Shown here piece by piece: positions 26,374 through 63,113 of a stretch of DNA of 64,000 bases. The stretch comes from Tomocerus qinae (taxonomy: Eukaryota; Arthropoda; Collembola; Entomobryomorpha; Tomoceridae): NCBI GenBank assembly GCA_020055645.1, contig CM034546.1:129787875-129851874 (forward strand). Direction: 5' to 3'. Positions within the stretch are counted from its first letter, which is position 1, and every line of letters begins with the position of its first letter. A program made the translations under genes and the position numbers. The notes beneath the pieces were generated by a model, which saw only the letters and a list, made by a program, of their open reading frames with translations, did not search any database and was not told where the DNA came from.

Positions 26374-27911
26374 TTAGTATTTATTGAAATTCAAGATGAA
26401 AATCAGAAAAAACTGGAAGAGCTTTATAATTAGTCTTCTGAACAATGCATACATTATTTCTGCGCAGAAGACAAGAAAGTCAAGTGCATAAAGAAAAGAA
26501 CCCAAGTAAAAGAGGGAAACAATATTTGAATTTTTGATGTTACTCATTACGTCATCATTCTCTAAATTCTTCAATTCCCTTAATTCCGAAGCCTTGAATA
26601 TATAATTTCCCACTTCTCGAATAATCGGAAAATTCCAGAGCTCATTAGTAGTTGTGCACGGTGATAAGCAATATGTATAATTGGAAACTTTGGAATCCTA
26701 ATTAGAATAGTTTGACGGAAAAGCTTGTCCTTGCCTTGAATGAATTTGGGATTAGAAAATATTGATTTCTTTTGAATATTCAAATTGTGTGAGTAATCAA
26801 TATACGCTCTATTCTCACAGTTTCTAATGAATTCGCTATATTTTTTATAAATTAGATTTTTATTTTGAGTTGTAGATGGGTAACATCTGTTCTGTTGTGT
26901 AGATATCCTATTAAAAAGCGCGTTGGAAAAATAGAATATTTCGGTTTTTGATTCAGTTCTGTACTTTTACTATTAAAGGTCAAAATTTCCGTCCAGTGCC
27001 ATTCCGTTATATCATTAGGGCTTAAGCCTTTTCCAGCAAGTGTTTTTGCTGCTATAAAACTCAACGTTTTGTTTTGACAAACATCACTAAATCGAGGATC
27101 CCATGTTTCCACAGAACAGTTTTTTCTTAAATCAGTCTCCCCACATGAATCAAATGTTGAATGCCCAATTATCTCACTGCAAATACAATACTGAATTAAA
27201 TTTTGAATTGATACAATTCCTTCAGCGTATGATTTCGAAGGGCCGGCTATTAGTTCTGCCTTATTGTCTTGAAAATGCATTATTACGTTAAATTTAAAGA
27301 TTTCAACATTCGCACTAATTAATATAAACCCATTCAGGTCTCTGAAAAGGTTGTATTGGTTTTGTGGTTTAAGCGGTAAAATAATCACAGATGAAATTAC
27401 ACATTTATAGGCATTGCTAATTACTACTCCGAAAATAATCCAAATTCCCGTAGTAAATACTAAAAGAATGCCCCACTTTTTTGGTATCACTCTCAAAACA
27501 CTTTGTTCTAGTAAAATAGCAAAATTTATGAATATTTTTTGGAGAAGATTTCTTAAAGTGTGCATTCCATCACAATTTTTAGATTGGGAATATTGATGTT
27601 CTTGTAAAATGGTTAGAAATGCAAGAATTAAGCTGAAAATTATGATTACGTTCCAGGATTTAGTATCATATGGATTAGTATACATTAGCCATGATAGACG
27701 ATGATGTACTCCAGAACAAGTAATAAAATTCCAGCTTCTTGATCCTATTATCACAATCGTACGACCGGAATTTAAGTTTATCGATAACATGGATATTCCT
27801 GGCAAGTATGACATAATATTTTTTATTTCAAAACGTTTCAAGGTTCTTCGGATTTTAAAATCATCAAATATAAAGTGTTTGAAAATACTCACAAGATCCA
27901 AATTTTTTCCC
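26374..27911 (-). pseudogene. Ionotropic receptor, C-terminal part (channel and tail), broken
   Basis: Minus-strand reading frames encode the channel half of a variant ionotropic (chemosensory) glutamate-type receptor. Segments in order are: a stretch after the first ligand-binding lobe with the first membrane segment (WNVIIIFSLILAFLTILQ), a pore/second segment region (LLVFTTGIWIIFGVVISNAYK), the second ligand-binding lobe, and the last membrane segment (NIVSLFYLGSFLYALDFLVF). They lie in three different frames: 27911-26852, then 26783-26580 preceded by in-frame sequence from about 26880, then 26613-26374. The changes fall near short homopolymers, around 26860 and 26625. There is no start codon of its own; the frame runs upstream into the element at 27903. 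The signal peptide and first lobe are found at 32008-32841 on the same strand, so this is the distal half of one gene cut by an insertion. Confidence 0.75.
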
Positions 27912-28098
27912 ACTTTTATTTTTTTTTGTGTGTTATGGGGTGGGATTTTTTTAATTTTTTCCCACTTTCAATTATTTACGTTTTATAGGGTGGGATTTTT
28001 TAAATTTTTTCCCTCTTTTAATTATTTATGTTTTATGGGGTGGGATTTTTTTTCATTTTTTCAAACATGTTAATAATGATTTCATTTTATTTTATTCA

Positions 28099-28850
28099 AT
28101 GCAGAACCGTCCAGTGACGATGCAGCTTCTCTTGGACCAAGTCATGTCATCTTTAATCAACAAATATGATGAAGACGAAGGCAGGCCACTGATGAAGAAA
28201 CTATACGTCCTATCCAGAAAATTTTTTACGCCGAATCAGTTCCGCGCCGTAAATCGAGCAAGAAATGAAGGGAGATCGGATAATTACTGTACCTTTTGCC
28301 ACAAAACTTTCAGTAGCGGCGGATGGACAACGCACTGCGAGTAAGTGTTTTTTTTAATTTTTTCCCACTTTTAATTATTCATGTATAATTTTTTCCCACT
28401 TTTAATTATTCATGTATGTTAGGGGGTGGGATTTTTTTCATTTTTTCCCACTTTTATTTTTTAATGTGCTGTTATGTTGTTTTTTTTGTTGCTTTCAGTA
28501 CCCACGTAATTAATGGGGACCGGTTCCACTGTGTCGTCGAGAACTGCTCTAGGAAATTCATTTCTGCCTGGAGGATGAGACAGCATATGATATCTGGACA
28601 TAAGATGACCGATGCGGCAACCAAAACAGCCATGAGAGGGATCAAGAAGGTGTCATCTGGGATTGCAAAACCAGATATGGACTACGATCTCCACGACGAG
28701 CGAGCAGGAGCGAGCGTTCAAGCCAGGAAGCGTCGAAGGAAAATTATTGCGGTGATTGCTGCTGTCATGCCACCAGAAGATGATGATGATGATGAAGACG
28801 AAGAGGAGGAGGATCAAGGCGATAACATCGACGACCTGGATGACGCTTAG
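28099..28850 (+). CDS. Two-finger C2H2 protein with acidic tail
   Basis: Two exons, 28099-28340 and 28499-28850, joined by a GT-AG intron, encode 197 aa. Finger 1 has C64, C67, H79 and H83, and is split by the intron at codon 81. Finger 2 has C92, C97, H110 and H115. A basic stretch (QARKRRRK) is followed by an acidic C-terminus (about residues 177-197, rich in D/E). The fingers suggest DNA binding; the acidic tail could contact other proteins. The intron contains the element's 26-bp palindrome at 28427-28452, and two more lie just after the stop. A natural hypothesis is that this protein binds those palindromes, but nothing in the sequence proves it. An acceptor-like TGCAG at the proposed start means that an upstream exon is possible. 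Confidence 0.65.
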
Positions 28851-29499
28851 TTTTGTGGGATTTTTTCTTAAAATTCCCACTCCTGTTTTATACTATTATA
28901 TTATTATTTTTATGTATACCTTTTGTGGCAGCTCCTGTTTTATACTATACTATTCTATTCTATTATACTATTAAACTATATTATACCTTTGTGGGAGTTT
29001 TTCTCAAAATTCCCACTCTATGATGAATTATGCTATGTGTGTGTGTGTGTATTTTATTGTAATAATATATTGTAATAATAAACTGTAATAATTGAATTAG
29101 TTAATAAGTTAACCTACATGATATTATTTATTTATTTGGGAAACAACAAAAAATACAAAACGGGGTATAACTACTAACTACAGGTGGGAAATAACCTAAA
29201 AACTCCCACAAGTCGCATTGGGGAGTTTAATTATTTTATGTTAATTAAATAAATAAATTTACAACCTACATGATATTATATTATATTTAAGAACAGATCC
29301 AACTTATCTGTTTAAAATAATAACTACTATTATTTATATTGCCTTTTTTCCTAAACAGTTGTAAAAAAGTTGTGAAAACTACTTATTTATATGAAAGTGG
29401 GAAAAAATCAAAAAATTCCCACCTCATGAATAAAAAATCGTATTAAGTACTTAAAGTGCGAAAACTAATAAATTTCCGTACTGATAACACTTTGTTCTG

Positions 29500-29897
29500 C
29501 AAAACACGAATCTACATATTATATTATTATATAATAATATTTTAGGAATGCCAGCAAGAAATACCAAACGGAGTTTATAATTTGTCTCAAAAAACATATT
29601 CCGTTACTTTATTTACCAAAACACGTATCTACATATTATTATATAATATTTTATAGATGCCAGCAAGAAATACCAAACGGAGTTTAAAGTCTATAAAACG
29701 GACTTAGCAGGGTTTATGTTCATCTCAATATCATTTTTGACGTTACATATCAAATGGGCACAGTAGTTAGTATAAAACGGGGGTTGTGGGAAATAATTGA
29801 AAAAATACCACTAACATTTATTGAGCATTATTTTTTAATCAGAGCACAGTAGTTAGTATAAAACGGGGGTTGTGGGAAATAATTGAAAAAATACCAC
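29500..29897. repeat. Two pairs of direct repeats between the convergent genes
   Basis: Pair 1 (about 29508-29580 and 29624-29686) shares TCTACATATTA and GCCAGCAAGAAATACC. Pair 2 (about 29759-29811 and 29844-29895) shares CACAGTAGTTAGTATAAAAC and ends in a GTGGGA...TACCAC palindrome. They fill the gap between the 3' ends of the two element genes. Confidence 0.75.
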
Positions 29898-29987
29898 TTC
29901 ACTTCACTAAAAAGTTCAGTCTCCGCGTCACTTGGTGGATCATCGTGATCATTTTGTAATGACGGTGGTGTTGGCGGAACTGGGATA

Positions 29988-31427
29988 CTAAGTGGTAACA
30001 CCGGCATTAGCATCGTTGTTGACATCTTCCTTAATGTAGTCGGCGATTGGTTTGGACGTTGTTTGAGTGATTGTATCTCCCTCAAGGGTCCATTCAACGA
30101 AACTGGTTACTTCTTCGTTTCCTTCCTGAAGTGGGAAAAAATGAAAAAAGTCCCACATTAAATACTGCAGCCCAATCAGAAGTACTTGATGTGGGAAAAA
30201 ATGAAAAAAGTCCCACACTTACATATAACTTTTGTTTGACGTGGATGCTGGTGATGCGACGAGCAATCGCTTTCCCCAAGTTATCCCTCATATCTTTTGA
30301 TTCCATCTTCCTAGTCTTTAATATATGTTTTATAAACACATTTGGTTTAATGTTTGTTGTAATGACTCTGGGCATCATAGCTGGAATATCGATATGGCTG
30401 TGTTTGTACGAAATTGTTCTGGAAGTGGGAGAAAAGACATAAAATCCCACATATATATATACCATAAAAAAATATAAAAAAACATACCTCTGAGTGTTTG
30501 GTGACAATAAAGCCAAAAAAATGGTCAAGTCTAATGACTCCAAGGTCATCTCATTAAAGATTAGACCATGATGTACAGTAGGATTAAAACCTTTGAACCC
30601 TTCATTTTGATTGACCAACTTATAGGTCGGGAAAAGCGCCATCATCCATTCGGTTTTACCCAAACCGGGTTCTCCATGCACATATAGGCATCGCTTTTCA
30701 TCTGTCATCATTTGATGAACACGATCAGGTAACGTCTAAACCACACATAAACGAATTAACACTAAAGTGGGAAAAAATGTAAAAACTCCCACACTGGGAC
30801 TAACTAACCTTGACTTTAAACGTATTGATGTCCCTTGCTACAAAATCGGGTTTCCTAAAAAGTGACTTGACATAATCCATGAATGTGGTGGAAGCCAAAA
30901 ACCCAGGATGACTGCTGGATACCGCGTTAACAGCTTCCTCATAGGTTGCTGACTGTTGCACTGCTATATCTTTGGCAATTTTGAATTCTGGCCTTTGCTT
31001 CTTTTTAGGCTGTAACCAAAAAAGTGGGAAAAAATTACAAAATTCCCACAATCCAAATAACCAATTAAAAAACTTACAAATAAAACTTTTTTAACTTTTT
31101 TCCGCTTTCCAACTGGTTCATCGTCCTCCTCCGTTGTACTTAACGCCGATCTCACTCCAGACGTAGACTAAAAATTTAAAAATGCGTGTTTATGTATATG
31201 TGTGTGGGAGTTTATTAATAAATTCCCACTTAAAATACGAAGTTGCTTACTTGTACATCTTTCAAATTTTTGAGGGCTGTAGCATTTTCCAATAATTCTA
31301 CACGATATTTGTCCATCTCAACTTCTTCTCAACTTCAATTCTAAAAAAAATTAAAAATATTTACCTCTTCTTGGGGATTATCCTGATAAAATTTGATCCA
31401 ATCCTCGATATCTTTTTTATCACACAT
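29988..31427 (-). CDS. CRESS-Rep-like SF3 helicase, seven exons
   Basis: Exons on minus: 31427-31365, 31316-31251, 31167-31078, 31009-30809, 30735-30488, 30418-30223, 30125-29988. They sum to 1002 nt and encode 333 aa with all GT-AG introns. Residues 1-73 are charged, with a possible coiled coil and basic NLS-like patches (KRKKVKK, PKKKQR). Residues about 90-135 resemble the linker between nuclease and helicase in CRESS-virus Rep proteins. Walker A is GEPGLGKT (161-168), Walker B LIFNE (198-202), motif C VITTN (241-245), then a basic ARR segment (about 271-273). This matches the superfamily 3 helicase of Rep. No HUH nuclease motifs are present. Each intron except the first contains one or two copies of the 26-bp palindrome. 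TTCGAC repeats upstream could serve as its origin or promoter sites. It is apparently intact. Confidence 0.75.
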
Positions 31428-31633
31428 TTTGCCGGATGCAGGAGATGTTCACTGTAGCACGACCACGGAATGACTACTGAAACAAACTGTAATTCAATCT
31501 TAAACAAAAACTCAACTTTTGGTTCGTGCTTCGTGCTTATTGGTCAGTGAAGTGTCACGTGGTTAGCCCCCTAGATATAAATTTTGCACATTTCACATTC
31601 GACACACAGTGGGTAAACAGTTAAATTAAATAA

Positions 31634-32018
31634 AATGTTCGACTCTTCAACTATTAATTATGTTCGACGTTCGACGATCACGGACACCAACAGTTAATGT
31701 TCGACTCTTCAACTATTAATTATGTTCGACGTTCGACGGTCACATGGTAAAGCTTTTATATTTATAAATACAAGGACATAATCTTTTGTGGGAGTTTTTG
31801 ACAAAATTCCCACAAAATGATAAACATTCAAAAAAGACAACACCAAACAGTTAAATTAAAAAAAGAGGTTCGACGTTCAACTATTAATTATATTCGACGT
31901 TCGACGTTCGACGTCACGTGACCTAGTTGCTGTATATATGTAAAAAACAAGAAATAAGGGGTGGGCTTAAATAAATTAAAAAAAGAGGTTCGACGTTCAA
32001 CTATTAATTATATTCGAC
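31634..32018. promoter_or_regulatory. TTCGAC iteron array upstream of the helicase gene
   Basis: Four copies of a composite repeat start near 31634, 31697, 31867 and 31987. Each has TTCGAC, a short gap, TTCAACTATTAATTAT and then TTCGAC; three continue with further TTCGACG units. The first two and last two form similar pairs, and the last pair is exactly 120 bp apart. CACGTG-type motifs (TCACGTGACC at 31914-31923) adjoin. Iterated short sites beside a Rep-type helicase gene recall replication-origin iterons. They could instead be promoter elements. Confidence 0.6.
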
Positions 32019-32841
32019 ATGGCTTAAATGGAGTTATCCAATTTGTATTGAAAGAATTGTTCGTTTTTTCTGCTTGTTCATACATAAAATTGCCCTTTTT
32101 TGGATTGTAAACAAATGTTCCACAATAACTTGCCTCTGGTCTTTTCTTTTTGTCAAAGTGGAAATCAAAAATAATATTCCGAAAATATTGCAGAGTATAT
32201 TGCTGTAAAGAGGAGACAGTTTTGTTTTCAATTACTGAAAATGCATCGAAATAGTCACACACTGTTGGACATCCAGAACAAATCAAGTAAATGTAATTTA
32301 TCTCTACAGTTATTTCATTCGAAATATTTTCCGTCTCTTCCAATTTGATTTCTAAGGGCAAATAGATATAAAATACTCTGTACAGCTGTGATTGGGAAAT
32401 GCTCGAAGCAATTAAAATTCGGTAACCAAAACTGTCTGTACACAAATCGTTGCTCCTTTCAATTTCGTCTGCACAAGTGTTAACCACCATTTTTTCGCTA
32501 TTTAAATTAATAAAAATTATAGCAAATTGTAAAACCCACTTTCTCACAACAGGTTTACCTGGAAATTGATCTAGATATAGAATCTTGAGAGGACGATTTC
32601 CCGTGTATTCTATTGCATGGTAATTATCATCATTGTAAATAATTGAAATATCGCAATCCCAAAATGTGTCAATAATTAATTTCAAATCTTCACTTTTAAC
32701 TGGATGTTGCCTTTTAGGCTTTTGGATATTATTATTGGACTTGAACGAAGGAGACAGCGGTAATGGTGAGGCATTGAAAACTAATGGAAACGTACAACAT
32801 AATAAAACGACACTAAGGATAATACCAATTAAAGAATGCAT
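32008..32841 (-). pseudogene. Ionotropic receptor, N-terminal part (signal peptide and first lobe), cut
   Basis: ATG at 32841-32839 begins a hydrophobic signal peptide (MHSLIGIILSVVLLCC) followed by about 255 aa of extracellular domain with several cysteines, as in divergent arthropod ionotropic receptors whose odour or taste ligand binds outside the cell. The frame runs to the boundary of the Rep-helicase element and stops a few codons inside it (TAA at 32008). Transmembrane segments are missing here; they occur at 26374-27911 on the same strand. Together the pieces form one receptor gene disrupted by insertion. The family call rests on the combination with the downstream channel half; the N-terminal domain alone is too divergent to be certain. 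Confidence 0.65.
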
Positions 32842-33809
32842 TCTATTTAGTTGGTTTTTTTATTATTTGAATATCATTTAAGACGTTTCCACACAATAAT
32901 TACCAACGTTGGAAAGAAGAGCTAAACTTTTTTTAGGGTTAAGTTGTGAGATATCAAAGACTCTAAGAAAAGAAATTTCTTCAACTCAATTTTGTTAGAC
33001 AATAAGTCAATCCTAGAATAATAATAAAAAAGTAGGACCAAAATATTTCATTCGGTCTACCTTTTAGCAGAATAAAAGTATTATTGTGAAGGTTTTTAGG
33101 ATTTGAATGTATTTCTGTGTTTTTCAGGGAACAAAAGAGATACTCCTTTTTCACAAAAAAGGTAAAAAGTACTACTTTTTCTAAAAAAGCAGTCCTTTTT
33201 GCATTTTTTACATGTAAAATGTGGGAGTAAATGGGACATGCTGGTACATCAAAAAAGGCAAAAATGGACTGCTTTTAAAAAATCTTTTCCTACTTATTTT
33301 ACAAAAAAGGCAAAAAAGTTCCTTTTTAGCTCCCTGTTATTTCTTTGCATTTAGTTCTGTTTTCGTCAAACACGGTCGAGTAGTATCGTTTGACAATTTC
33401 ATTGGCAAATGGCTACTCAAGGTTGCCATTTATTTAGTATATTATTTTTATATATTTTTATACTACTAATAAGTAAATACTCAATGTTATCAAATGGTCC
33501 TTCAAGAAATTAAGAGTGGTATTGTTTTAGCTTAGTATAGGCTTTAGCCGAATGAAATTGTTAGTAAAAAAGTCATTTGCTTTGGCAGTATAATTTGCTA
33601 TATGGACGGTTATATTACATGTAAAGAGGCATTTTCAAACTCGTTTGAGGTTTATTTGTGTACCTAAATCTCTTGTTATAAGAAAATTATGTGTAATTGA
33701 AGTATTTCTGTATTCTTTTTGAGTAGATACTACAGCTTTCATACCACTTTCAACTTCAAACAAAGATTTTTGCATTATTGATGAAAATCGTCAGGCTTGC
33801 ACTTGCTAA
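32842..33809. repeat. Upstream flank of the receptor gene with a hAT-like repeat
   Basis: Non-coding. From 33125 (CAGGGAACAAAAGAG) to 33336 (complement CAGGGAGCTAAAAAGG) imperfect inverted termini enclose A-rich sequence with repeated AAAAAAGG blocks, which looks like an old hAT-type non-autonomous copy. The bases outside the termini do not form a clear 8-bp duplication. Confidence 0.4.
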
Positions 33810-36821: not shown

Positions 36822-37039
36822 GTATGTATCAAGGTAGTCTATTTGCATCATATCATGGCTGTTTTTTAATTTGAGACCATTTTGACAACAAAAAATACAG
36901 ATATACTACTTTCTTTTTATTTTCGAAGATAATTTTCGAAAAATAAACATATGTAAAATTTTATAATTGAAACGTTCTTAAAATACTTTATTTTATTCTG
37001 CTATACAGACAAGATACGTTGAACATCGCCAAAGTCATA

Positions 37040-38323
37040 ATGAAAGCTGTGGAATTACTGTTAATTATTTTGGCCTTTTTTGCTAAAAATTCGGAGACAT
37101 CTCCAGACGAAAACAGATTACTCCATCATCTTCTAGACAAGTACAACATTTTGGAACGGCCCGTGGAAAGGCACTCGGAGCCCGTTGTTGTCAAGTTTGG
37201 GAGGATGACCTTATTACAAATTATCGATTTATGTGAACAAAGTCAAATTCTGACGACAAATGCATGGTTGCGAATGGAATGGGTGGATTCGAACTTGAAA
37301 TGGAACTCTTCAGAGTTTGGGGGCATCGAAGAAATTCCTATCCCGCCCCACCGAGTTTGGAAACCAGATATTTTGATGCACAACAGCGCCGGCATGACAC
37401 TCGACTCCAACTTTCCAACTAATGTTGTGGTTAAATATAATGGCGAAATTGTCTACTGCCCTCTGGGTATTTTTAAAAGCTCTTGCAATACCGACTTGAC
37501 ATTATATCCGTACGAAGAACATAAATGCGAAATGAGATTCGGTAGTTGGACCTACGATAAAAAAAGTTTAGATGTGGAATTTCAACACGAATATGAAGAG
37601 AATTGGGATAGTTTTATAGAAAATTCTCAATGGCAAGTTCTAAAAATTCCAGTAGAGACAAATTCGTATGCTTCCAATGAACGGAATGCGATTGTGACAT
37701 TCACGCTCCATTTACGGCGCCGTGGAGAGGGAGTGCTGCATCCTTTAATCTTCCAATTTGTACTCATTTCTGCAATCTCCTTATTTGGCTTCTTCCTCCC
37801 TGTCAACTCTAAAGCCAAGTTATTTCTAAACCTTGCAGCTATTTTCTGTATTATGTTCATGATCAACACTGTGAACACAACTCTGTCAGTCCCTCTTGGT
37901 CATGTCCCCTTCTTTTACAAATATTTCTCCGCTTTAACAATTATTGTACTATTATCGACTCTCTCATCGATATTAATTTTGAATTTTATTGCCAACTCAA
38001 AAAACCCTGATGAAATACCCCAATGGAGTCGAGTTGTTTTGTTGAAATATATGCCATTTATTTTATTTATGACTCGAGGTAAATTAAATGATGAAAGAAA
38101 ATATGGCGGCTGCGAAATGGACGAACAATACTTAGTGAATCAAAATTCTGAGGTTTCAGTAATTCGTAGTGAGATTAGAGTCATCAATAACAAACTTCGA
38201 AAAGATCAAGTTCGAGAAGATATAGCCAAAGATTGGGTATTCGCGGCCAATGTTGTTAACCGATTATCTCTGATTACTTTGACTATCATTACGGTCATAA
38301 TTACTGCTGTATTTTTGTCATAA
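37040..38323 (+). CDS. Cys-loop ligand-gated channel subunit 1 (nicotinic-like, no CC pair)
   Basis: Single-exon coding region for 427 aa, starting at the ATG conserved in gene 2. It has a signal peptide (MKAVELLLIILAFF), loop D (WLRMEWVDSNLKWN), loop A (VWKPDILM), a canonical Cys-loop with 13 residues between cysteines (C149 and C163, with YPYEEHK inside), loop B (GSWTYD), then M1 (LIFQFVLISAISLFGFF), M2-M3 (AAIFCIMFMINTVNTTLS, SALTIIVLLSTLSSILIL) and a last membrane segment at the C-terminus. This is the nicotinic receptor fold, a pentameric ion channel at the plasma membrane. The paired cysteines of loop C are absent (SYASNE), so it is of non-alpha type, and the usual GEK motif before M2 reads SKAK. 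Ligand and ion selectivity are not predictable. Confidence 0.9.
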   Translation: MKAVELLLIILAFFAKNSETSPDENRLLHHLLDKYNILERPVERHSEPVVVKFGRMTLLQIIDLCEQSQILTTNAWLRMEWVDSNLKWNSSEFGGIEEIPIPPHRVWKPDILMHNSAGMTLDSNFPTNVVVKYNGEIVYCPLGIFKSSCNTDLTLYPYEEHKCEMRFGSWTYDKKSLDVEFQHEYEENWDSFIENSQWQVLKIPVETNSYASNERNAIVTFTLHLRRRGEGVLHPLIFQFVLISAISLFGFFLPVNSKAKLFLNLAAIFCIMFMINTVNTTLSVPLGHVPFFYKYFSALTIIVLLSTLSSILILNFIANSKNPDEIPQWSRVVLLKYMPFILFMTRGKLNDERKYGGCEMDEQYLVNQNSEVSVIRSEIRVINNKLRKDQVREDIAKDWVFAANVVNRLSLITLTIITVIITAVFLS

Positions 38324-41405: not shown

Positions 41406-41883
41406 TAAGGTACGTATCTAAGTACCTTAAACTCTCGAAAAAATGCGTAAAAAGCAGATATGGCATTATTTCTTATTTCAAGGGATTTTTCTTGAAAATG
41501 AAATATTTGAAATAAATGCAATTCGCATGTGTACACGCATGTGCGTTTAATTTATTTCAAATGAAATTTATTGAAATTTTTGAAATAATGATTGATTTTT
41601 GAAATAAGAAATTTCATTTTTCAAGGAAAGTGGAAGTGAAATATTTCGCAAAATATTTTAAAACTTTCGCTAATTCATTTCTGAGAAATATATCAAGTGC
41701 CATGTGCGTTAAAAAGTGAGTGAGAGTTTAGTCGTTAAAAATATGGGCCTTGATTACTTATATTTACCATATTTACAGCTCGAAGATAATTTAAAAAAAA
41801 ACAAATCTTGAATTTTAAAATTGGAACGTTCTTAAATTATTTTATTATACAGACAAGATACTTCGAACATCGCCAAAGTCATA

Positions 41884-43245
41884 ATGAAAGCTCTGGAATT
41901 ACTGTTAATTATCTTGGCTTTTTTTGCCAAAAATTCGGAGTCATCTCCAGACGAAACAAGATTACTCCATCATCTTCTAGACAAGTACAACATTTTAGAA
42001 CGGCCCGTGGAAAAATACTCGGAGCCCGTTGTTGTCAAGGTTGGGATGATTTTATTCCAAATTATCGACTTGTGTGAAAAAAGTCAAATTCTGACGACAA
42101 ATGCAGGGTTTCGTATGGATTGGGTGGATTCGAACTTGAAATGGAACTCTTCAGAGTTTGGGGGCATCGAAGAAATTCCTATCCCGCCCCACCGAGTTTG
42201 GAAACCGGATATTTTGATGAGCAACAGTGCAGGCATGACACTCGATTCCAACTTTCCAACTAATGTTGTGATTAAATATGATGGCAACGTTTTTTACTAC
42301 CCTCTGGGTATTTTTAAAAGTTCTTGCAAGATCGACCTGACATTATTCCCTTATGAAGAACATAAATGCGAGATGAAATTCTACAGTTGGACCTACGGTG
42401 GATATCATTTGGATATGGATTCTCAAGTTGAGGGAGATTTGACTAAGTTAATAGCTAGTCCTGAATGGGAAGTTGTAGAAATGCCAGCACACAAGAATAC
42501 AACTTATTATACGTGCTGCCCGGAACCGTATATAGATGTGACGTTCACAATCCATTTACGACGCCGTGGAGAGGGAGTGCTGCATAATTTAATGTTCCAA
42601 TTTGTACTCATCTCTGCAATCTCCTTATTTGGTTTCCTCCTCCCTGTCAACTCCAAAGCTAAATTATATCTAAACCTTGCAGCTATTTTCTGCATTATCT
42701 TCATGATCAACACTGTGAATACAACTCTGTCAGTCCCTCTTGGCTATGTCCCCTTCTTTTACAAATATTTCTCCGCTTTAACAATTATTGTACTATTATC
42801 GATTCTCTTATCGATTTTAATCCTGAATTTTATTGCCAACTCAAAAAACGCTGATGAAATACCCAACTGGATTCGAATTTTTTTTTTGAATTATGTTCCT
42901 ATTATTTTATTTATGACTGGAGCTAAATTAAACGATGAAACAAAACATGGCGGCTGTGAATTGGATGAACAATTCCCACTTAATCTAAATTCCGATCTTT
43001 TAGTAATTCGTAATGAGATTAAAGTCATCACTGACAAACTGCGAAAAGATGAAGTTCGAGAAGATGTTGCCAAAGATTGGATATTCGCGGCCAATGCTGT
43101 TAACCGATTATCTCTGCTTACTTTGACAATCATTACGGTCATTTTTATCATAACCATAGTTTCGGATATTCCCATTTCCCAGAAAATTTTGGTTGGACAC
43201 CGGGAATTCCCACCAATTTGGGAAATGGGAAATACTGGGAAATAG
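41884..43245 (+). CDS. Cys-loop ligand-gated channel subunit 2 (nicotinic alpha-like)
   Basis: Single-exon coding region for 453 aa, paralogous to 37040-38323. It has a signal peptide (MKALELLLIILAFF), loop D around W80 and W87, loop A (VWKPDILM), a Cys-loop with C148 and C162, loop B (YSWTYG), and loop C with YYTCCPEPY (C211-C212), the adjacent cysteines that mark acetylcholine-binding alpha subunits. Four membrane segments follow. The pre-M2 motif is SKAK as in gene 1. After the last membrane segment the protein runs about 25 residues further than gene 1, because a 244-bp repeat inserted at 43158-43401 supplies the new C-terminus and stop codon. The Polinton element inserted right after its poly(A) signal (AAATAAAAC near 43518), so mRNA 3' ends may be altered. 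Confidence 0.9.
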   Translation: MKALELLLIILAFFAKNSESSPDETRLLHHLLDKYNILERPVEKYSEPVVVKVGMILFQIIDLCEKSQILTTNAGFRMDWVDSNLKWNSSEFGGIEEIPIPPHRVWKPDILMSNSAGMTLDSNFPTNVVIKYDGNVFYYPLGIFKSSCKIDLTLFPYEEHKCEMKFYSWTYGGYHLDMDSQVEGDLTKLIASPEWEVVEMPAHKNTTYYTCCPEPYIDVTFTIHLRRRGEGVLHNLMFQFVLISAISLFGFLLPVNSKAKLYLNLAAIFCIIFMINTVNTTLSVPLGYVPFFYKYFSALTIIVLLSILLSILILNFIANSKNADEIPNWIRIFFLNYVPIILFMTGAKLNDETKHGGCELDEQFPLNLNSDLLVIRNEIKVITDKLRKDEVREDVAKDWIFAANAVNRLSLLTLTIITVIFIITIVSDIPISQKILVGHREFPPIWEMGNTGK

Positions 43246-43401
43246 TGGGAAATGAGTGTCGCCATCTTGCAGAATTAGGGTCTATTTCCCACTAAATTTT
43301 TCTATTTCCCATTTTCCCACCCACTTGGCCTTTTTGCTTCCCACTTTTCCCACTGGGAAATGGGAAATGTCCAACTTCTTTCATTTCCCACTCGAAACCA
43401 T
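43158..43401. mobile_element. GGGAAAT-rich insertion in the 3' end of receptor gene 2
   Basis: Comparison with gene 1 shows about 244 extra bp carrying many GGGAAAT/ATTTCCC units in both orientations. The ends look like GTTTCG...CGAAAC, and AACCAT is duplicated at 43152-43157 and 43396-43401. It is a small fold-back type element that changes the receptor's C-terminus. Confidence 0.65.
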
Positions 43402-46014: not shown

Positions 46015-46260
46015 ATATGACGTTAATTAGTATTATTCAGTATAAATTCGCGTAAATATGTACCAACTTGACGAATGAACAAATTTCATCATTATATCAA
46101 GTTCAATCGCTAGATGGTATGAAAGAAGCTTTCCTGACATTACGGCATAAAATGTTTCATTCATGATGGTGCCTAGGTGGCTCTGAGGAAGCTAATTTGT
46201 CATTCCGGCCGTAGTATTTATTACTTTGTGAATAAACAAATACATTCATTATCACTCAGG

Positions 46261-47222
46261 ATGGCGACCAATATTAAGCGTAACTATCTCAATCCAAAGT
46301 TTGCAGGCTCATTCAGCGGAGCTGCTACGTTTATCAAAAACCGGAAATACACAGATAGGAAAGTTGTACTGAATGAACTCTATAAATTAAAACCATATGT
46401 GCTACATAGGCCTGTTGTTAATAGATTCCCCAAAAGGAAATTCATGGTTCATTTTCGTCTGTACCAATTCCATTGTGATTTACTAGACTTATCTAGGTAT
46501 GCAAACGAAAATAATGGATACAAATACTTTTTAACTGCTATTGACGTTTTCTCTAAAATGGCTCATATGGTTCCAATGAAAAATAAAACAGTTGATACTG
46601 CCCTAAAAGCTCTCAAGCAAGTTATTAAGGTACTGGGAAACCTCAGACTTTACTTACAGATTTAGGCTTGGAATTCCTAGGAAAGCCAATGAGAGACTAT
46701 TTAAAACACATTGGTGTGCGCCACATATTTGCCTATGGAGAAAATAAAGCTTCAGTTGTGGAACGTTGGCATCGTACAATAATGTCTCGTTTGGCAAGAT
46801 ATTTTACATACAAAGGCAACCACAAGTACATTAATGTGTATAAACAAATATTATCTTCTTACAATTCTACTATTCATTCTACGACAAAGTTTAGACCCCG
46901 TGATGTAAATGATAGTAATGAAAATGAAGTGTGGAAAAATACTTTTGGCCACCTCATCAATGTAAAGAAGAAGAAACCAAAATTTAAAGTTGGGGATACT
47001 GTTGTAGTGGCTCGAATCAAGAAAACATTTTCTAAAGGATATTTACCTGGATTCGTAAATGAGGTTTTTAGCATAGCTAAGGTGTATGATACAATTCCCC
47101 CTACCTACCGATTATTTGAAAGTGAACAAGAACAGCAGCGAAAAGCTGAAGAAGATGCAGCACGTATTAAAGCTGGTAAAAAGCCAAAAAGTACCTACAC
47201 TCTCAATCGGCAGACCTTATAG
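46261..47222 (+). pseudogene. Polinton integrase (DDE, retroviral type), frame break in the core
   Basis: Start chosen at the ATG at 46261, giving the family's usual N-terminus (NPKFAGSFSG). The catalytic core begins with the first acidic residue in FHCDLLDLS and the conserved YFLTAIDVFSKMA. The frame closes at 46663-46665; the region with the second Asp (LLTDLG), the Glu (ASVVERWHRT) and the C-terminal SH3-like domain (FKVGDTVVVAR, FSKGYLPGFVNEVFSI) lies in another frame running to 47222. The shift falls near 46630. Integrase inserts the element and makes the 6-bp duplication. Since the insertion looks young, the break is either very recent or an assembly artefact. Confidence 0.85.
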
Positions 47223-47278
47223 AGGGCATATTCTACGACCAAGAGTTGTCTCACTTCATTCCTACTTAGACAGTCGTC

Positions 47279-48331
47279 ATGGACGCATTCTATGTTGAAA
47301 TTGCGAGTCCTTGGGACGTTTACAAAAAGTCACCTGGAATATTTTCCAACATATTGTACAAAACAATTAATCTCCCACCTGACCAATTTGAGTGTGGATT
47401 ATCTCAAATTCAATTTACTACTACCAATAGAAAGTTTTTTAAAAGTGACGACAGTTGGTTCTCTATTCGAACCGGTGATGTTGATCGAAAAACTGTGACA
47501 ATACGCAATTTGGCATTTGCAGATATTTTGAATGACTTATCCACCAAATTACAAAAACAGGGAATTAATGTTACTTTAATGAGAGGCAATGTTATAAAAG
47601 TACAAATAACTGTACACGACGAAAAGAAAATATTTACATTTGACCCTCATTTGGCAAGATTATTAGGATTTTCTACTCGGGAATTTAAAACTGGATCACA
47701 TGTCGCACCCAATCCAATATCTGAAAACTTTTATCATCACTATATCCCTGAAGATCATACATTCACTTTTACTATAGTGAATGATTTGCCTATATACAAT
47801 CTTACCGTCAAAGAACCGGATAGTTTCAGCCTATCAGAATTAGCAACTGCAGAAATCAATACTGCCTTGGAATCAGAATTTCCCTACATAAACTTTAGTG
47901 TGCACGAGTTGACAAAATTGGAAATTACAAATAAGGACGAAGACGGTGCTCAAAACGTAGACATAAGATTTGGCCCTCGAATGAAGGATTTATTTAAAAC
48001 TTCAGGTGTTTTACTAAAAGTTGGAGAATCAGTATTCCTTAATGACGTCGACCATAGTCAATTAGGACCACGACATGCAGTAGTACTCACTAATGTTACA
48101 AAGAATCAGTTCTTTGGAAGTCGATACCTACCTATAATAAAATCTATTCCAATTGCTGATCATGATTCTGCTATTGTTAATTTATCATTCGATCATATTG
48201 AGTATTGTCCAGTTTCAACCTCAGAGTTAAAAGAAATTTCTATACAAATACTGGATGAATATTTAGAATCGATATCAGTCGCGAATTCGCCGTGTTACGT
48301 GAAACTTCATTTCCGTCGTAAAAAGTACTGA
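47279..48331 (+). CDS. Polinton minor capsid (penton-like) protein
   Basis: 350 aa, uninterrupted. The C-terminal part (ISIQILDEYLESI ... CYVKLHFRRKK) is the pattern seen at the end of Polinton minor capsid proteins, a single jelly roll related to penton base. It lies directly before the small basic protein and major capsid gene, the usual order. It would form capsid vertices if virions are made. Confidence 0.75.
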   Translation: MDAFYVEIASPWDVYKKSPGIFSNILYKTINLPPDQFECGLSQIQFTTTNRKFFKSDDSWFSIRTGDVDRKTVTIRNLAFADILNDLSTKLQKQGINVTLMRGNVIKVQITVHDEKKIFTFDPHLARLLGFSTREFKTGSHVAPNPISENFYHHYIPEDHTFTFTIVNDLPIYNLTVKEPDSFSLSELATAEINTALESEFPYINFSVHELTKLEITNKDEDGAQNVDIRFGPRMKDLFKTSGVLLKVGESVFLNDVDHSQLGPRHAVVLTNVTKNQFFGSRYLPIIKSIPIADHDSAIVNLSFDHIEYCPVSTSELKEISIQILDEYLESISVANSPCYVKLHFRRKKY

Positions 48332-48333
48332 AA

Positions 48334-48528
48334 ATGGAAGTTGTTCAAATCGGAGGGGGTTTAGGCCCTCAAAAATCGTCCTACTCTATCCCAATTCCAA
48401 ATAAACCTCCAGTACCAGAGAAAAAGAAGCCCATTCCTAAGAAGAAACCCGTCAAGGCAACACCTCGCTATCGTGCGCAGATTGGGAAAGGAAAAAAGAA
48501 GATTATTAAAAAGAAGAAGAAAAAGTAA
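48334..48528 (+). CDS. Small lysine-rich basic Polinton protein
   Basis: 64 aa, starting two bases after the minor capsid stop. It has proline/lysine-rich repeats (PIPNKPPVPEKKKP, PKKKP) and a polybasic C-terminus (GKGKKKIIKKKKKK). The composition suggests nucleic-acid condensation, comparable to core peptides of adenoviruses. This is inferred from composition and position only. Confidence 0.6.
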   Translation: MEVVQIGGGLGPQKSSYSIPIPNKPPVPEKKKPIPKKKPVKATPRYRAQIGKGKKKIIKKKKKK

Positions 48529-48530
48529 AA

Positions 48531-49901
48531 ATGGCAGAAGTTTTCATGACCGAAGGGAGTACATCCATTATTCGATCGGAATTGGATTACTTTTCCAAGC
48601 CAATTAGTGACGTCAGTGTCTCTCACTCTTACATCCAAAATATTTACCCATTAAATTCACTCAGTGAACGTTACGCGGCACTTCAGTTCTTTATTCTTGG
48701 AAATTCATCATTCATTGACCTAAAAAACAGTCTTTTATGGCTTCGCTTCAAAGTATTAAAGCAGGATGGAACAGCGGTGCCTGCTGGCACAGTCGTGTCA
48801 GTGATAAACAATATCATGCACTCGCTTTTCCAAACAGCAGGACTCAGTATCAATGATTACCCAGTCACTTCTCTATCCAACACTAATGGATATAAATGCT
48901 ACATTCAAACGGCATTGGGTTATAGGTAATAACAATAATAATATTCTTTACAATGTCAATAATTTAAAACTAATATATTTTGGGGATATAGTAAAGCATA
49001 TAAAGATGCTCAAGGCCAGGCCAGTGGATACTATGAAGATACTGAAGGAGACGATTTTACAGCAGACAATACTGGGAATGAGTCACGTAAAGCTCTGATA
49101 AAGGAAAGTGGAGTCGTTGAAGTCTGTGGACCTCTATTACTCGACTTTGCAATGCAGGACAGATTCGTGCTAAATAACTGTGACGTCAAAATAAAATTAA
49201 ACAGAGCTCTGGATGAATTTTTACTTTGGACGGCTGTTGCAAAAGTGAATAATGCTGTTCCATTCAAAATTGAAATGCTAGACGCCCTATATTTGTGTCA
49301 ACGGCATATTCTCACTCCAGTTGCATTCAACTACATTCAAGAATCACTAAATACTGAGGCTGCAAGATATCCAATATCAAGGTGTGAAGTAACTACTTTT
49401 AATGTGGCTGGCGGACTGCAAACCACAGTGGTGAATAATCATATTACTGGTCAAATTCCACAGTTGCTATGTGTGGGTATGGTACGAAGTGATGCTTTTG
49501 CAGGGGATCATACATTGAATCCCTACGACTTTAAGCAATTCAAATTGGCAAACATTTCCATTAATGTGGACAATGATCAAAGTCTGTATCATGCTATTGA
49601 CTTTACTGATAAGAAATACTTGGAAGCTTACAAAAACTTAAATTTGGCGGCATTCAACAAAGCTGACGGAAATGGAATAACAATTACACAGTTCAAGAAA
49701 GGATTCTTTTTGCTGGTGTTTGAATTGATATCCGCAAGCAGTGGAGACTCTTTAAAACCAGAGCGACGGGGCAATTTGAGCCTTGAAGTTAAATTCGCCC
49801 AGGCATTGGAAAAGTCTATTACAGTGTTAACTTTTGCACAGTATCAGAATAATGTGTATATTGATAATGCTAGAAATGTTAAATATGATGCAATGGTATA
49901 A
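48531..49901 (+). CDS. Polinton major capsid protein, with one 66-bp intron
   Basis: Two exons, 48531-48925 and 48992-49901, code for 434 aa in one frame if the GT-AG intron 48926-48991 is removed; unspliced, a stop follows at once. The N-terminal region (YAALQFFILGNSSFIDLKNSLLW, NNIMHSLFQTAGLSIND) matches double jelly-roll capsid proteins of Polintons and adintoviruses. The stop codon overlaps the protease start (TAATG at 49899-49903). The length is towards the short end for the family. Confidence 0.8.
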
Positions 49902-50314
49902 TGGATACAAACCAGCTGAAAGAGAAATTGTTAGTAATAGCAAATAAGTTTAAGATAAGTGACGTAGATGTAATTCCTAGAAATAGATTAGTTATTAAGA
50001 ATGGTATGTATATAGTAAACTGCTGCACTGGCTCTTATAAGGGTTTGCACTGGTGTGCTGTATATGTAGATAATGATAAGGTTTTCTTTTTTGATTCACT
50101 AGGACAGAGTCCCACTAATTATAAGTTTGACATACCTAATGCTGTAGTAGTTAATGATAAAATGTTACAAAGCGGGCCGAATTGTGGTCAATTTTGCCTG
50201 TTCTTTCTTTATCACATTAATGTACTACCTATACGTAAAGTAATGAACTTGTTCACTTGTAACGCTAAGAAAAATGACATGCTTGTACAACGATTCGTTA
50301 ATAAATTGAAATAA
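49901..50314 (+). CDS. Polinton adenain-like cysteine protease
   Basis: 137 aa. The catalytic His lies in LHWCAVYV (His at codon 50), the acidic residue in FFFDSLG, and the Gln-like/Cys element in SGPNCGQFCLFF. This is the arrangement of the C5/Ulp1-type protease that matures capsid proteins. The length is typical. It shares one base with the capsid stop codon, and appears intact. Confidence 0.82.
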   Translation: MDTNQLKEKLLVIANKFKISDVDVIPRNRLVIKNGMYIVNCCTGSYKGLHWCAVYVDNDKVFFFDSLGQSPTNYKFDIPNAVVVNDKMLQSGPNCGQFCLFFLYHINVLPIRKVMNLFTCNAKKNDMLVQRFVNKLK

Positions 50315-50363
50315 ATTCGAATTTTACTGTCATTCAACAATTGATTCTCTTCCCGTCAACATA

Positions 50364-51471
50364 ATGGCATCAAGACGCCCGTACCAACTGAACGCAAGGG
50401 TATGTAGTAACTGTCATTCACTATTGCATCATAAATTAATAATTTATTTCTTATTAGTACACTTGTGAAGTACCTGGTTGCAAATACAAGACCTACAACA
50501 CTAGGCAAATGAGGGAACATTCATTTAAAAAGCACGAGTGACCTAACTGCGGTGAAAAATTCCGGTTCATCACACAGCATTTACCATGCACAGCACCACA
50601 AGCTCCACAATTCGGCTATGGTAATTTGGACATTTCACCCTTTTTTGAATTCGGCTCTGCCCATCATGATCAACTGACAACATTCAGATGCAACTCTTTG
50701 GAAAACATTTTGGATATTCCCAGCGTGTTTGAGTATTTACAATCAACTGTATTTCGTATCTTAAATCATTATCTTAACAAAGATAAAGGTATGAAAGTTC
50801 ATTTTACTATTAGTGCTCGATTGTATAACAAAACAGACGACATTTATAGGAACGAACACTTTAGAACACCATCTATGACTATTGTACATGGTAGCAGCAT
50901 TTCTTTTGTACTTAGTACTGCTTTGACTCATGAAATTGCAGTTATGGAATTATTTGTCGGTCCTGAAGGCAGTGGTTGGTCAATTGACTCTTTTAATTAC
51001 ATTGATATGGCTATAGCTAAATATGTGCCATTGAGAGTTCGTGGGTATATACCTATACCAGCAGTGTTTAAAAGCAGGCAGGGACTATTGAACATAGAAA
51101 ATAATGATGAAAAGTGTTTTTTATATTGCATTGCTGCCAGATTTCATTCTGTGGGTGGCCGTAAAAGAGTAAGAGTGCAAGCAAGACACTATTTAAATGA
51201 GTTTACAAAGTATAAATACGTTGAATCTGATTTTCCAATGAAAATTCAAAATATTCCAAAATTTGAGAAAAACAATAATGTATCAGTGAACGTATACACA
51301 TACTCTGAAAAGACAGTATATCCTATACAGATTACTACACATGAAATTGACAGAAGTAGGCATGTAGATTTACTCTTGCTTGAGCAATATGGTAGTGATA
51401 ACAGTCACTTTGTATTAATAGAAAACTTATCAGCCTTTTTAGGCAATGACCAAAAAATACGATTTGTGTAA
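50364..51471 (+). pseudogene. Zinc-finger and pre-polymerase module, in-frame TGA
   Basis: Exon 1 (50364-50399) is followed by a 58-bp intron (50400-50457, GTATGT...TTAG) and an exon coding for a C2H2 finger (CEVPGCKYKTY ... HSFKKH). A TGA at 50539-50541 interrupts this frame, which then runs open to 51471. The 281-aa part after it (EKCFLYCIAARFH, IPKFEKNNNVSVNVYTY, HFVLIENLSAFL) is the module that in related elements precedes the polymerase in one polypeptide. The last 26 bases overlap the polymerase frame, with a shift at a run of six A. The break at 50539 is either a mutation, an unrecognised splice or recoding. Confidence 0.7.
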
Positions 51472-54400
51472 GTACTGCCTAATAAAAAGAACTGTAGTAT
51501 CCAAGTTACAACTGCACAAAAGACTATGTAATGGCATTGTTGAGTCAGATATTGAACAACTAAATGATAGTTTTATTGATGACGATGGAGCTGTGGATTA
51601 TGGTATTGAATATATTGAAATGTCAGACGCTTCTGAAGCAGACGAAGATTTGGAAAATGACATTCTTTATTGTCAGGATTCAGACGACTCAGACAATGAA
51701 GAACCATTAGCTAATAATGATGATCCAGAGTATGAGGAATGCGATAAATGTCACAATAAATATAACAATGTGTCACCATTAGAAAGACATGAGAAAACAT
51801 GCAGAACTATTAAACCTCCTGTATTAAAATTTTCAGAGAGAAAATATAATAAATTTAGAAAATACGGGCAAACACTACCAGCGGATGTCATAACCATTGC
51901 GGACTTTGAATCATTTCTAGTTCCCGCAAGTCGTACTACAGATAATAATAATACAATTATTCGAGATAAACATGTCGCCCAAAGTTATGGATATGTAATT
52001 TGTTCTGAAACTAAAATCGAGAGCAGTAAATTTTATGACGGGCCTAACCCCGCACAAGACTTTATTAATAGTTTGTTAGATGAAGCTAATATGCGTATAG
52101 AAAGAATAAAAAATTATGAGACTATGAGACTCACTCCTGCAGATCAGCAACAATTTGAATGTGAAACATTTTGCTCACTCTGCAAACGAGATTATAATGA
52201 CCCTAAACGTCAACTGATTTTCAAGGTAAATCTGCCTAGGATAATTTCAAACAGACATCATGCCCACTGTGATCAATGGTTTAAATCAAAGTGGTATACA
52301 GCAGGGCAATACATTTGCTCATTGTGCAGTAGATGTAATTTTCAATTAAAATATAAAAAGCAACTTTTTGTATACCTACACTCCTCAATGAAATATGATA
52401 ATAAATTGTTAATAAAAGAATTACCTCCAGAACGGGTAAAACAAGTTAAACTACTAGGTAGAACAACTGAACATTTTTTGTGTATTGAAATTGATGGAAT
52501 TGTACGTATTACTGATAGTTTAAACCACCTTCAATCCTCTCTTGCCGTTTGTGCTAAGACTTTACTTGAAAGTAAGAAACAGTTCAAGTACACAAGGCAA
52601 TTCTTTTCTTATCTCACTGATGATGAGTTTTCAGGAGTAACCCGTAAGCAATTATTTCCATATAGGTATTTAACAGGACCTGAAGTGTATAGTGACACTT
52701 GCCTACCTGATAAAAGTTATTTTGATAATGATTTATCTGGTGAGAAGGCAACAGACGAGGATATCGAACATGCAAAGAAAATGTGGGGTGTATTTAAATG
52801 TTCAACATTTCAAGATTATATTCGTGCTTACTTACAAGTAGATGTCCTCATTCTAGCTGATGTTTTCATGAATTATAGGTCAGAGGCCTATCATAAATTC
52901 GGAATTGACCCTGCAGCTAGTATAACTGGATCATCATACAGTTGGCAGGCTTGCTTATTTAACAGTAAAGCAAAAATTGAGACAATTAGGTCAATGGATA
53001 TCTATCAATTTTGCAAGAGAGGATTAAGAGGGGGCATATGCACATCAAATCAAAGGTTTGCTAAAGCAAACTACAGGGATTTACCAGGATTTGATCCATC
53101 AAAACCAGAGTCTGCAATCATACAGGTTGATTGTAATAGCATGTACCCTCATGTAGCAAAGCAACCTCTTCCAGTTAGTGATTATCGCTTTTTAACTGAG
53201 CCAGAAGTGGCCAATTTTGATTTAAACTCATTAGGGTCGGTAAAAAACAAGGGACAATTTCTAGCTGTCGATTTAGTGATTCCAAATTCACTGCATGTAG
53301 CTCAATATATGTTGCCATTAGTGCCACAGAAGCGTATTGTGAGGGAAGATGAGTACAGTGAATACCAATTGCAATTATTAGACCAAATCAACATGAAAAA
53401 TCCACATGCAGCTGAACGTCTTTTATTATCATTTCATCCCAAGGAAGACTATGTCGTTCATCACAGAGTGTTGAAATTCTACATGGAAAAAGGCATTCAA
53501 GTGAAAAAAATTAGACAGATATTAGAGTTTACGGAAAAGCCAATTTTTAGGGATCACATGAATGATTTGTTAGATAGTAGAAGAGATGCAAAATTTCAGT
53601 CAGAAAAGCATGCCCTGAAAATTAATGCAAATTCCATCCCCGGGTATAGTATGATGGATCCTAGCAATTATATAAACATCCAAATATGTTTAGATCCCAC
53701 TCATTGTGAAAATTTAGTAAAACTAGCAACATATAAAACCCATTATTTGATTGAGGGCCGTAGTGGTATGAGTGTAATACAAATGAAAAGGAGTTCTGTC
53801 ACCTTTGAAGGCAATTTAATGATTGGTCTATCAATTTTGGATTTGTCAAAAATTGAAATGTATTCTTTCTATTTTGATGTTCTGTCTCCACATTTTAATA
53901 ACAGACTACGATTGCTATTCACTGACACTGATAGCTTGGCAGTTTTAATTGAAATAGCCAGTTCTGGTAAAAATTTGCTACATTTGCTAGAAGAGTTGAC
54001 ATTTTATATGGACTACTCAAATATTCCTCCTAATTCATATTTCTCACCATTATTTAATACTAATAACAAGGGTGTGAGCGGTAAATGGAAAATTGAAATG
54101 TCTCACGCACGAATCTTAGAAACAGTTTCACTAAAACTGAAACAGTATTCCATATTGTTGGAGGATTCAAGTGAAGTACTGAAGCAAAAAGGTATTAATC
54201 GTTCCGCCCTATTAGACAATGGAGAAGTAGGTGATTTACAGATAATCAAGCATAAGGTATATAAAGATATTGCACTTAATGGTGGTGCAAAGTATATCAG
54301 AATGAATTATATTAGTTCTAAGAACCAGAACCTTACAACCCGATCAGTTAGGAAAATGGGCTTTAATTCATTCAGTGCTCATAGGTATTTAATGCCTGAC

Positions 54401-55204: not shown

Positions 55205-55207
55205 ATC

Positions 55208-63024: not shown

Positions 63025-63113
63025 GAAGAAGCCATATGACAATGAAAATAATATGTATGACTAATGTCAGTTGTACTGATATTTTTTATATCACAGTTTC
63101 ATGTAATATTCCA

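What the first reader, a model, noticed from the sequence alone, without database searches (positions are those of the whole stretch)
27940..31814. Fixed-length 26-bp palindrome GTGGGA-N14-TCCCAC repeated at least 13 times
The outer hexamers and total length of 26 bp are constant while the central 14 bp vary. Hexamer centres are 20 bp apart, about two helical turns, as for a dimeric protein site. Copies lie in introns, 3' flanks and spacers of one element only. This points to selection on spacing, such as a binding site for the element's C2H2 or helicase protein, or an RNA hairpin.
Basis: seen in the sequence. Interest (0 to 1): 0.87.

Follow-up and report, generated by a model that had tools for sequence, protein, structure and literature searches.

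The report
Fixed-length palindrome array in mobile-like element
A roughly 4-kb stretch that looks like a foreign element, sitting in what is probably an arthropod gene region, carries sixteen copies of a 26-base mirror-image DNA word of fixed length, placed outside its predicted coding parts, which probably serve as docking sites for a paired DNA-binding protein.

Summary
GTGGGA-N14-TCCCAC occurs 13 times, all at 27940-31813. No other spacing from 0 to 60 occurs there. Three more copies have one mismatch and the same spacing. All 16 lie outside the predicted coding sequence of one ~4.1-kb unit, in predicted introns, UTRs and spacers. The unit holds a gene with an SF3-helicase-like core, a convergent gene for a two-finger C2H2 protein, and 13 TTCGAC iterons.

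The centre is not free: 8 of its 14 positions are A/T in 104 of 104 letters, giving GTGGGA-N-WWWW-N4-WWWW-N-TCCCAC. Similarity stops at base 26. RNA folds differ between copies and no stem change is compensated.

Best reading (inferred): sites of a homodimer, most simply the two-finger protein, working much as papillomavirus E2 sites do beside an SF3 helicase. Rivals: RNA hairpin (favoured by a strand bias), a spreading 26-bp micro-repeat, host Su(H)/CSL sites (spacing does not fit).

No relative of either protein was found. Splicing is predicted, not observed: 7 copies lie in or overlap frames that stay open. The whole-genome motif search did not complete, so linkage to further copies of the unit is untested.

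The parts
27940..27965 (.). palindrome copy (exact), left end, perhaps in a 5' intron or leader of the C2H2 gene
27990..28015 (.). palindrome copy with one mismatch, spacing exact
28426..28451 (.). palindrome copy (exact), predicted intron of the C2H2 gene
28855..28880 (.). palindrome copy (exact), 4 bases after the stop codon of the C2H2 gene
28991..29016 (.). palindrome copy (exact), presumed 3' UTR of the C2H2 gene, ahead of AATAAA at 29077
29184..29209 (.). palindrome copy (exact), between the convergent genes
29397..29422 (.). palindrome copy (exact), between the convergent genes
29786..29811 (.). palindrome copy with one mismatch, in a 55-bp duplication
29872..29897 (.). palindrome copy with one mismatch, second unit of the 55-bp duplication
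30131..30156 (.). palindrome copy (exact), last predicted intron of the helicase-like gene
30191..30216 (.). palindrome copy (exact), last predicted intron of the helicase-like gene
30425..30450 (.). palindrome copy (exact), predicted intron of the helicase-like gene, 6 bases from the acceptor
30767..30792 (.). palindrome copy (exact), predicted intron of the helicase-like gene
31024..31049 (.). palindrome copy (exact), predicted intron of the helicase-like gene
31204..31229 (.). palindrome copy (exact), predicted intron of the helicase-like gene
31788..31813 (.). palindrome copy (exact), upstream of the helicase-like gene, among the iterons
28099..28850 (+). gene for a small protein with two C2H2 fingers (one split by the predicted intron, one canonical) and an acidic tail; exons about 28099-28342 and 28499-28850; 5' end uncertain
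   Evidence: ORFs; finger spacing read by eye; Pfam matches below cut-off
29990..31438 (-). multi-exon gene with an SF3-helicase-like core (GEPGLGKT, LIFNEM, RVITTN); exon ends set by eye, the first exon uncertain
   Evidence: weak match to parvovirus NS1 (E 0.2)
31598..32018 (+). iteron-like region: 13 TTCGAC, 4 AACTATTAATTAT, upstream of the helicase-like gene
   Evidence: 3 other TTCGAC on the + strand of the window, and 7 of its complement GTCGAA, one of them in the unit (28732)
27902..32035 (.). approximate extent of the unit between two parts of an ionotropic-receptor-like gene; ends not proven (possible 6-bp flanking repeat ATCCAA at 27896 and 32036)

Best explanation
The 16 palindromes are cis-acting DNA sites of one fixed architecture (GTGGGA - N - 4 A/T - 4 free - 4 A/T - N - TCCCAC). 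A homodimer reads the two GTGGGA hexamers on one face of the helix, about two turns apart, across two A/T tracts. The simplest candidate is the two-finger C2H2 protein coded by the same unit, since two fingers read about six bases (recalled rule). Bound all along the unit but kept out of coding sequence, it would regulate both genes and help the SF3-like helicase to start replication at the iteron region, or hold the unit to chromatin, as papillomavirus E2 does with E1. Shown here: the pattern, spacing, A/T tracts, sharp edges and position. Predicted: exons, introns and domain calls. Inferred: that a protein binds, which protein, its dimer state and all downstream functions.
For: Exact spacing only. 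Hexamers identical in the 13 exact copies (chosen for that), inner part 60%, flanks 31-33% against a background of 30% (the two closest pairs left out of the means). G/C 0 of 104 at columns 8-11 and 16-19 against 28% in the surrounding non-coding DNA; 22 of 26 tracts are pure A or pure T against 6.6% of non-coding 4-mers (copies are not fully independent, e.g. 30131 and 30191 are identical). The right-hand tract is TTTT in 8 of 13 copies, AAAA or TAAA in 4 and TTAT in 1, which fits a constraint on A/T tracts better than simple copying. 29 of 33 half-sites in the unit are in exact-length copies. None of 16 overlaps the coding model, about 1609 of 4121 bases. The two-finger protein and helicase-like gene are in the same unit. 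Precedents, passages only: E2 sites ACCgN4cGGT, often with A/T-rich spacers, 17 in BPV1 (PMC3161962, PMC4545946), and 14 NS1 sites on the MVM genome (PMC7592911).
Against: No binding shown, no relative found, no other copy of the unit seen. The T-rich strand follows the presumed sense strand (14 of 16 copies with T > A, two near-symmetric; sense assigned by me from position), which a symmetric DNA site does not demand and an RNA function would. Splicing is unobserved: without it 3 copies (30131, 30191, 30425) lie in the 213-aa open frame of the helicase-like gene, and 4 more (27940, 27990, 28426, 31024) lie in or overlap other open frames. One unpaired half-site (28040) fits N15 best. In BPV1 12 of the 17 E2 sites are clustered in the URR, so even spreading is not the rule there. 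The finger residues do not obviously predict GTG GGA (by eye, recalled code), and Pfam calls neither finger above its cut-off.
Confidence: 0.53

Rival explanations
1. RNA hairpin: the sites act in the pre-mRNAs, as GUGGGA/UCCCAC stems with U-rich loops bound by a protein that controls splicing, stability or export.
For: T-rich strand is the presumed sense strand in 14 of 16 copies, switching between 28991 and 29184, in the stretch between the convergent genes; every copy is in a predicted intron, UTR or spacer; stems fold at -6.6 to -12.5 kcal/mol in the 13 exact copies. Inner self-pairing exceeds letter shuffles (63 of 5000 reach it).
Against: Copies fall into two different folds (6-7 bp stem with a loop of 12-14, or 10-11 bp with a 4-nt loop). 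No compensated stem change in any of 16 copies; both independent hexamer variants break a pair. Inner self-pairing is below that of mixed halves (30 against a mean of 40.5). T-rich flanks in many copies could give the bias. No Rfam match at E <= 1.
Confidence: 0.22
2. Micro-repeat: a 26-bp palindromic unit that spreads by itself or by hairpin-primed copying within the element and only looks like a selected site.
For: Similarity ends abruptly at base 26 on both sides; local duplications exist (30131/30191, 29786/29872, the 50-bp units at 27901-28062).
Against: No flanking duplication: longest flush repeat is 2 bases in 1 of 13 copies and 0-1 in the other 12 (11% of random intervals reach 2). 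Right-hand tracts swap as blocks while hexamers stay the same; length holds in run-rich sequence; no copies elsewhere in the 64 kb.
Confidence: 0.13
3. Host transcription-factor sites: paired sites for Su(H)/CSL, whose core is GTGGGAA, borrowed by the element as some viruses do (recalled).
For: Head-to-head GTGGGAA is the CSL paired site (PMC7685452 passages); the right half reads GTGGGAA in sense in 12 of 16 copies (counted).
Against: The cooperative gap is 15-17 bp between heptamers for mouse Notch; here it is 12. The left half has A at position 7 in only 4 of 16.
Confidence: 0.08

Closest known systems
Papillomavirus E2 binding sites with E1 SF3 helicase and E2
   Same: Many fixed-length palindromes with a spacer, often A/T-rich, on a small DNA that also codes for an SF3-type helicase; BPV1 has 17
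   Different: Site sequence and length differ (12 bp ACCgN4cGGT; none in the unit); 12 of the 17 BPV1 sites are clustered in the URR; candidate binder is a C2H2 protein; the unit here is chromosomal, with predicted introns
Parvovirus NS1 sites (ACCAACCA) on MVM
   Same: 14 sites on one small genome for the virus's own SF3 protein, which dimerises on them
   Different: Direct ACCA repeats, not palindromes; none in the unit; no HUH nuclease domain recognised here
Notch/CSL sequence-paired sites
   Same: GTGGGA(A) head to head
   Different: Gap 16 (15-17) between heptamers there, 12 here; seventh base not kept on the left
Subterminal repeats of DNA transposons (Ac/Ds, En/Spm; recalled)
   Same: Multiple short sites for an element's own DNA-binding protein
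   Different: Here spread over the whole unit, in predicted introns and UTRs, as fixed-length palindromes

Membership tests
Papillomavirus E1/E2 system | E2 site ACCgN4cGGT | tested here: not met
   ACCGN4CGGT: 0 in the unit, 0 in the window; looser ACCN6GGT: 0 in the unit, 3 in the window
Papillomavirus E1/E2 system | SF3 helicase gene on the same DNA | tested here: inconclusive
   Walker A, B and motif C-like stretches read by eye; Pfam hits below cut-off, NS1 E 0.2; fold failed (pLDDT 33.3)
Papillomavirus E1/E2 system | E2-type DNA-binding domain | tested here: not met
   No such Pfam family among the hits of the ORF pieces scanned; a diverged one could be missed
Parvovirus-derived element | NS1 site ACCAACCA | tested here: not met
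   0 in the unit on either strand
Parvovirus- or CRESS-derived element | HUH nuclease upstream of the helicase | tested here: inconclusive
   Five HUH-pattern hits in six frames of the unit, all in stop-to-stop frames of 14-55 residues; a diverged domain, or one split by introns, could be missed
Notch/CSL paired site | two GTGGGAA 15-17 bp apart | tested here: not met
   hexamers 14 apart in 16 of 16, that is heptamers 12 apart; left heptamer in 4 of 16
DNA transposon with terminal inverted repeats | TIRs and target-site duplication | tested here: inconclusive
   Only a 12-bp A/T-rich inverted match near the ends and a 6-bp candidate duplication ATCCAA; joining the frame there would hit a stop (reasoned by hand)
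Dimeric DNA-binding-protein site | binding by a dimer | not testable with these tools
   needs gel shift or SELEX
Element-linked motif | enriched in other copies of the element in the host genome | not tested
   The genome search unanswered

The most novel reading that the evidence does not exclude
An unrecognised class of arthropod mobile element that keeps a plasmid-like replicon in a chromosome: an SF3-type initiator with TTCGAC iterons as origin, and a two-finger C2H2 partner that coats the unit through about 16 fixed-length palindromes parked in introns and UTRs, an independent counterpart of the papillomavirus E1/E2 arrangement.
Probability: 0.16. Interest if true: 0.83.

Novelty: new variant of a known kind. 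Interest (0 to 1): 0.6.

Why it matters
Sixteen bipartite sites of exactly one length in 4 kb, outside the predicted coding sequence and in 6 of the 7 introns predicted inside the two genes, make an unusually clear case of constraint on site geometry inside a mobile-like element. If the element's own two-finger protein is the binder, this gives a small, testable replication or maintenance system beside an SF3-type helicase, with no relative found in the searches made here.

Tried and rejected
RNA self-pairing of the whole 26 bp: not the common feature. Rfam: nothing in 27800-32100 at E <= 1. Relatives of the helicase ORF: 68 candidates, none at E <= 0.001; of the C2H2 ORF (28389-28850): 33 candidates, none. 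The same collection holds many arthropod proteins (1222 hits for a neighbouring receptor ORF, 120 listed), so these blanks carry some weight; but the queries were exon-sized or held intron stretches and could miss relatives. Viral contigs by protein: none in three scans; by site pattern: 2 contigs (one match in each), 0 and 0. The pattern was stricter than the bare motif. IMG/VR is mostly not arthropod DNA, and the tool may leave out the window's own genome. Structure of the helicase ORF without an alignment: useless (mean pLDDT 33.3), so no fold search was made. PHROGs: best E 0.02, no function. Flanking duplications round the 26-mers: none beyond chance. Papers: the listings of searches (15 of 74 shown; 0; 15 of 166; 10 of 63) showed nothing that I recognised as this motif or element; the library is partial.
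Full report
OBSERVATION. The motif GTGGGA-N14-TCCCAC occurs 13 times in the 64-kb window, all between 27940 and 31813; 100 dinucleotide-preserving shuffles give none. Changing the spacer from 0 to 40 gives no other hit in this region and one N36 hit elsewhere, at 43245. Allowing one mismatch per hexamer, with spacers 0-60, adds three copies, each with one mismatch and exactly 14 (27990, 29786, 29872), and nothing else in 27851-32060. Outside the unit the same loose scan (at most one mismatch in total) gives 9 pairs at seven other spacings, 7 of them at 43.2-43.4 kb, none at 14. Among all hexamers with at least three G/C the next best inverted pair has 2 copies in the window, and ten simulated windows reach at most 2. 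A/T-only TTTAAT N5 has 18, 17 of them in a tandem repeat at 63132-63468.

ANATOMY OF THE SITE. The centre is not arbitrary. In the 13 exact copies the columns 8-11 and 16-19 hold G or C in 0 of 104 letters, the other six spacer columns in 23 of 78; non-coding DNA of the unit outside the sites is 28% G+C. Of 26 tracts, 22 are pure A4 or T4, against 6.6% of non-coding 4-mers. Read in the presumed sense, the left tract is TTTT in 11 of 13 and TTTA in 2; the right tract is TTTT in 8, AAAA or TAAA in 4, TTAT in 1. The architecture is GTGGGA-N-WWWW-N4-WWWW-N-TCCCAC: two 11-bp half-sites round 4 bp. Outside the 26 bp the pairwise identity falls at once to background (0.325 and 0.314 against 0.302; inner part 0.60; the pairs 27940/28426 and 30131/30191 were left out of these means, and the sites were selected for perfect hexamers). 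Twelve of 13 spacers hold A or T runs of four or more, yet all 16 copies have the same length. Of 33 half-sites in the unit, 29 are in these copies; four are unpaired (27908, 28040, 28363, 28394), in or next to the 50-bp tandem units at 27901-28062 and 28349-28467. Against strict spacing: the one at 28040 fits N15 best, with two mismatches; the other three have no partner with fewer than three mismatches.

SETTING. The sites lie in a unit of about 4.1 kb between two minus-strand parts of an ionotropic-receptor-like gene (26852-27967, Lig_chan E 0.0008, below its cut-off, and 32008-32859, no Pfam match). That the two parts are one interrupted gene is inferred. A neighbouring open frame matches nicotinic receptors, and the named best hits are arthropod, so the host is probably an arthropod. 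The unit holds two convergent genes. On the minus strand (about 31438-29990) is a multi-exon gene with Walker A GEPGLGKT, a Walker B-like LIFNEM and RVITTN, in the order of SF3 helicases (by eye); database support is weak (AAA_22 E 0.0007, below cut-off; parvovirus NS1 E 0.2) and the lone-sequence fold failed. On the plus strand (about 28099-28850) is a small protein with two C2H2 fingers, one across the predicted intron, and an acidic tail (fingers read by eye, not above Pfam cut-off). Upstream of the helicase-like gene are 13 TTCGAC and four AACTATTAATTAT in 31598-32018, which look like origin iterons beside A/T-rich DNA. The ends of the unit are unproven: a 6-bp ATCCAA flanks it, but joining the receptor frame there would meet a stop (by hand).

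LOCATION. None of the 16 copies overlaps the predicted coding sequence, about 1609 of 4121 bases (exon ends by eye). Five introns of the minus-strand gene, printed as 67-94 bases, carry a copy each (the last has two), and the short one near the start, whose status is doubtful, carries none; the intron of the C2H2 gene carries one. This rests on predicted splicing. If introns were kept, 30131, 30191 and 30425 would lie in the 213-aa open frame of the helicase-like gene, and 27940, 27990, 28426 and 31024 in, or overlapping, other open frames.

DNA OR RNA. The T-rich strand of the spacer is + for the five copies up to 28991 and - for nine of eleven from 29184 on, the other two being near-symmetric; the switch falls in the stretch between the convergent genes. 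The sense of copies outside the gene bodies is assumed. The bias suggests either an RNA role or the T-richness of introns, since many flanks share it. Against RNA: the copies would fold in two different ways, no compensated stem change exists in 16 copies, both independent hexamer variants break a pair, and inner self-pairing (30) is below that of mixed halves (mean 40.5). For RNA: inner self-pairing is above letter shuffles (63 of 5000 reach it). One DNA pattern covers all copies; no one RNA fold does. Papillomavirus E2 sites also show spacers that flip between A and T by position (PMC3161962 passages), so a strand bias does not exclude a DNA site.

MECHANISM. I commit to a homodimer reading two hexamers about two helical turns apart across A/T tracts, most simply the two-finger C2H2 protein of the unit (two fingers, about six bases; recalled rule), acting on transcription, on replication with the helicase-like protein, or on attachment to chromatin. 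The pattern is shown; the binder and the functions are inferred. Precedents for 14-17 sites on small DNAs with SF3 proteins are BPV1 E2 sites (PMC3161962, PMC4545946; passages), though 12 of those 17 are clustered in the URR, and MVM NS1 sites (PMC7592911; passages). Membership in either is not claimed: their site sequences are absent, and no HUH nuclease or E2 domain was recognised.

OTHER READINGS. CSL/Su(H) paired sites share the hexamer and the head-to-head order, but the gap there is 15-17 between heptamers (PMC7685452 passages) and is 12 here; GTGGGAA is kept on the right in 12 of 16 copies and on the left in 4 of 16. A spreading micro-repeat would explain the sharp edges, but no flanking duplication beyond chance exists and the tract swaps are hard to reach by copying.

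LIMITS. No second copy of the unit was found in the window or by the scans made of IMG/VR. Everything therefore rests on one locus.

Noticed in passing
31598-32018: Iteron-like array: 13 TTCGAC in one orientation and 4 AACTATTAATTAT, upstream of the helicase-like gene; 3 other TTCGAC on the + strand of the window and 7 of its complement.
   Followed up: partly
46177-55907: Plus-strand run of long ORFs that look like a Polinton/Maverick (integrase-, protease-, capsid-, DNA polymerase B- and ATPase-like by eye); no family search was made.
   Followed up: no
36971-38320 and 41836-43242: Tandem pair of nicotinic-receptor-like genes, 91-92% alike in DNA stretches; the first matches arthropod nAChR.
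   Followed up: partly
1289-24954: Three tandem sets of similar ORFs that look like aldehyde oxidase genes (by eye).
   Followed up: no
62952-63632: Tandem repeat that reads (F)NREL(K) 18 times in one frame.
   Followed up: no
43192-43386: Cluster of GTGGGA/TCCCAC-like words at other spacings, in GGGAAAT-type repeats; unrelated to the N14 sites by spacing.
   Followed up: partly
27901-28062 and 28349-28467: 50-bp tandem units whose borders fall inside the palindrome, with half-destroyed copies.
   Followed up: partly
29758-29898: 55-bp perfect duplication, each unit with a palindrome that carries the same single mismatch.
   Followed up: yes
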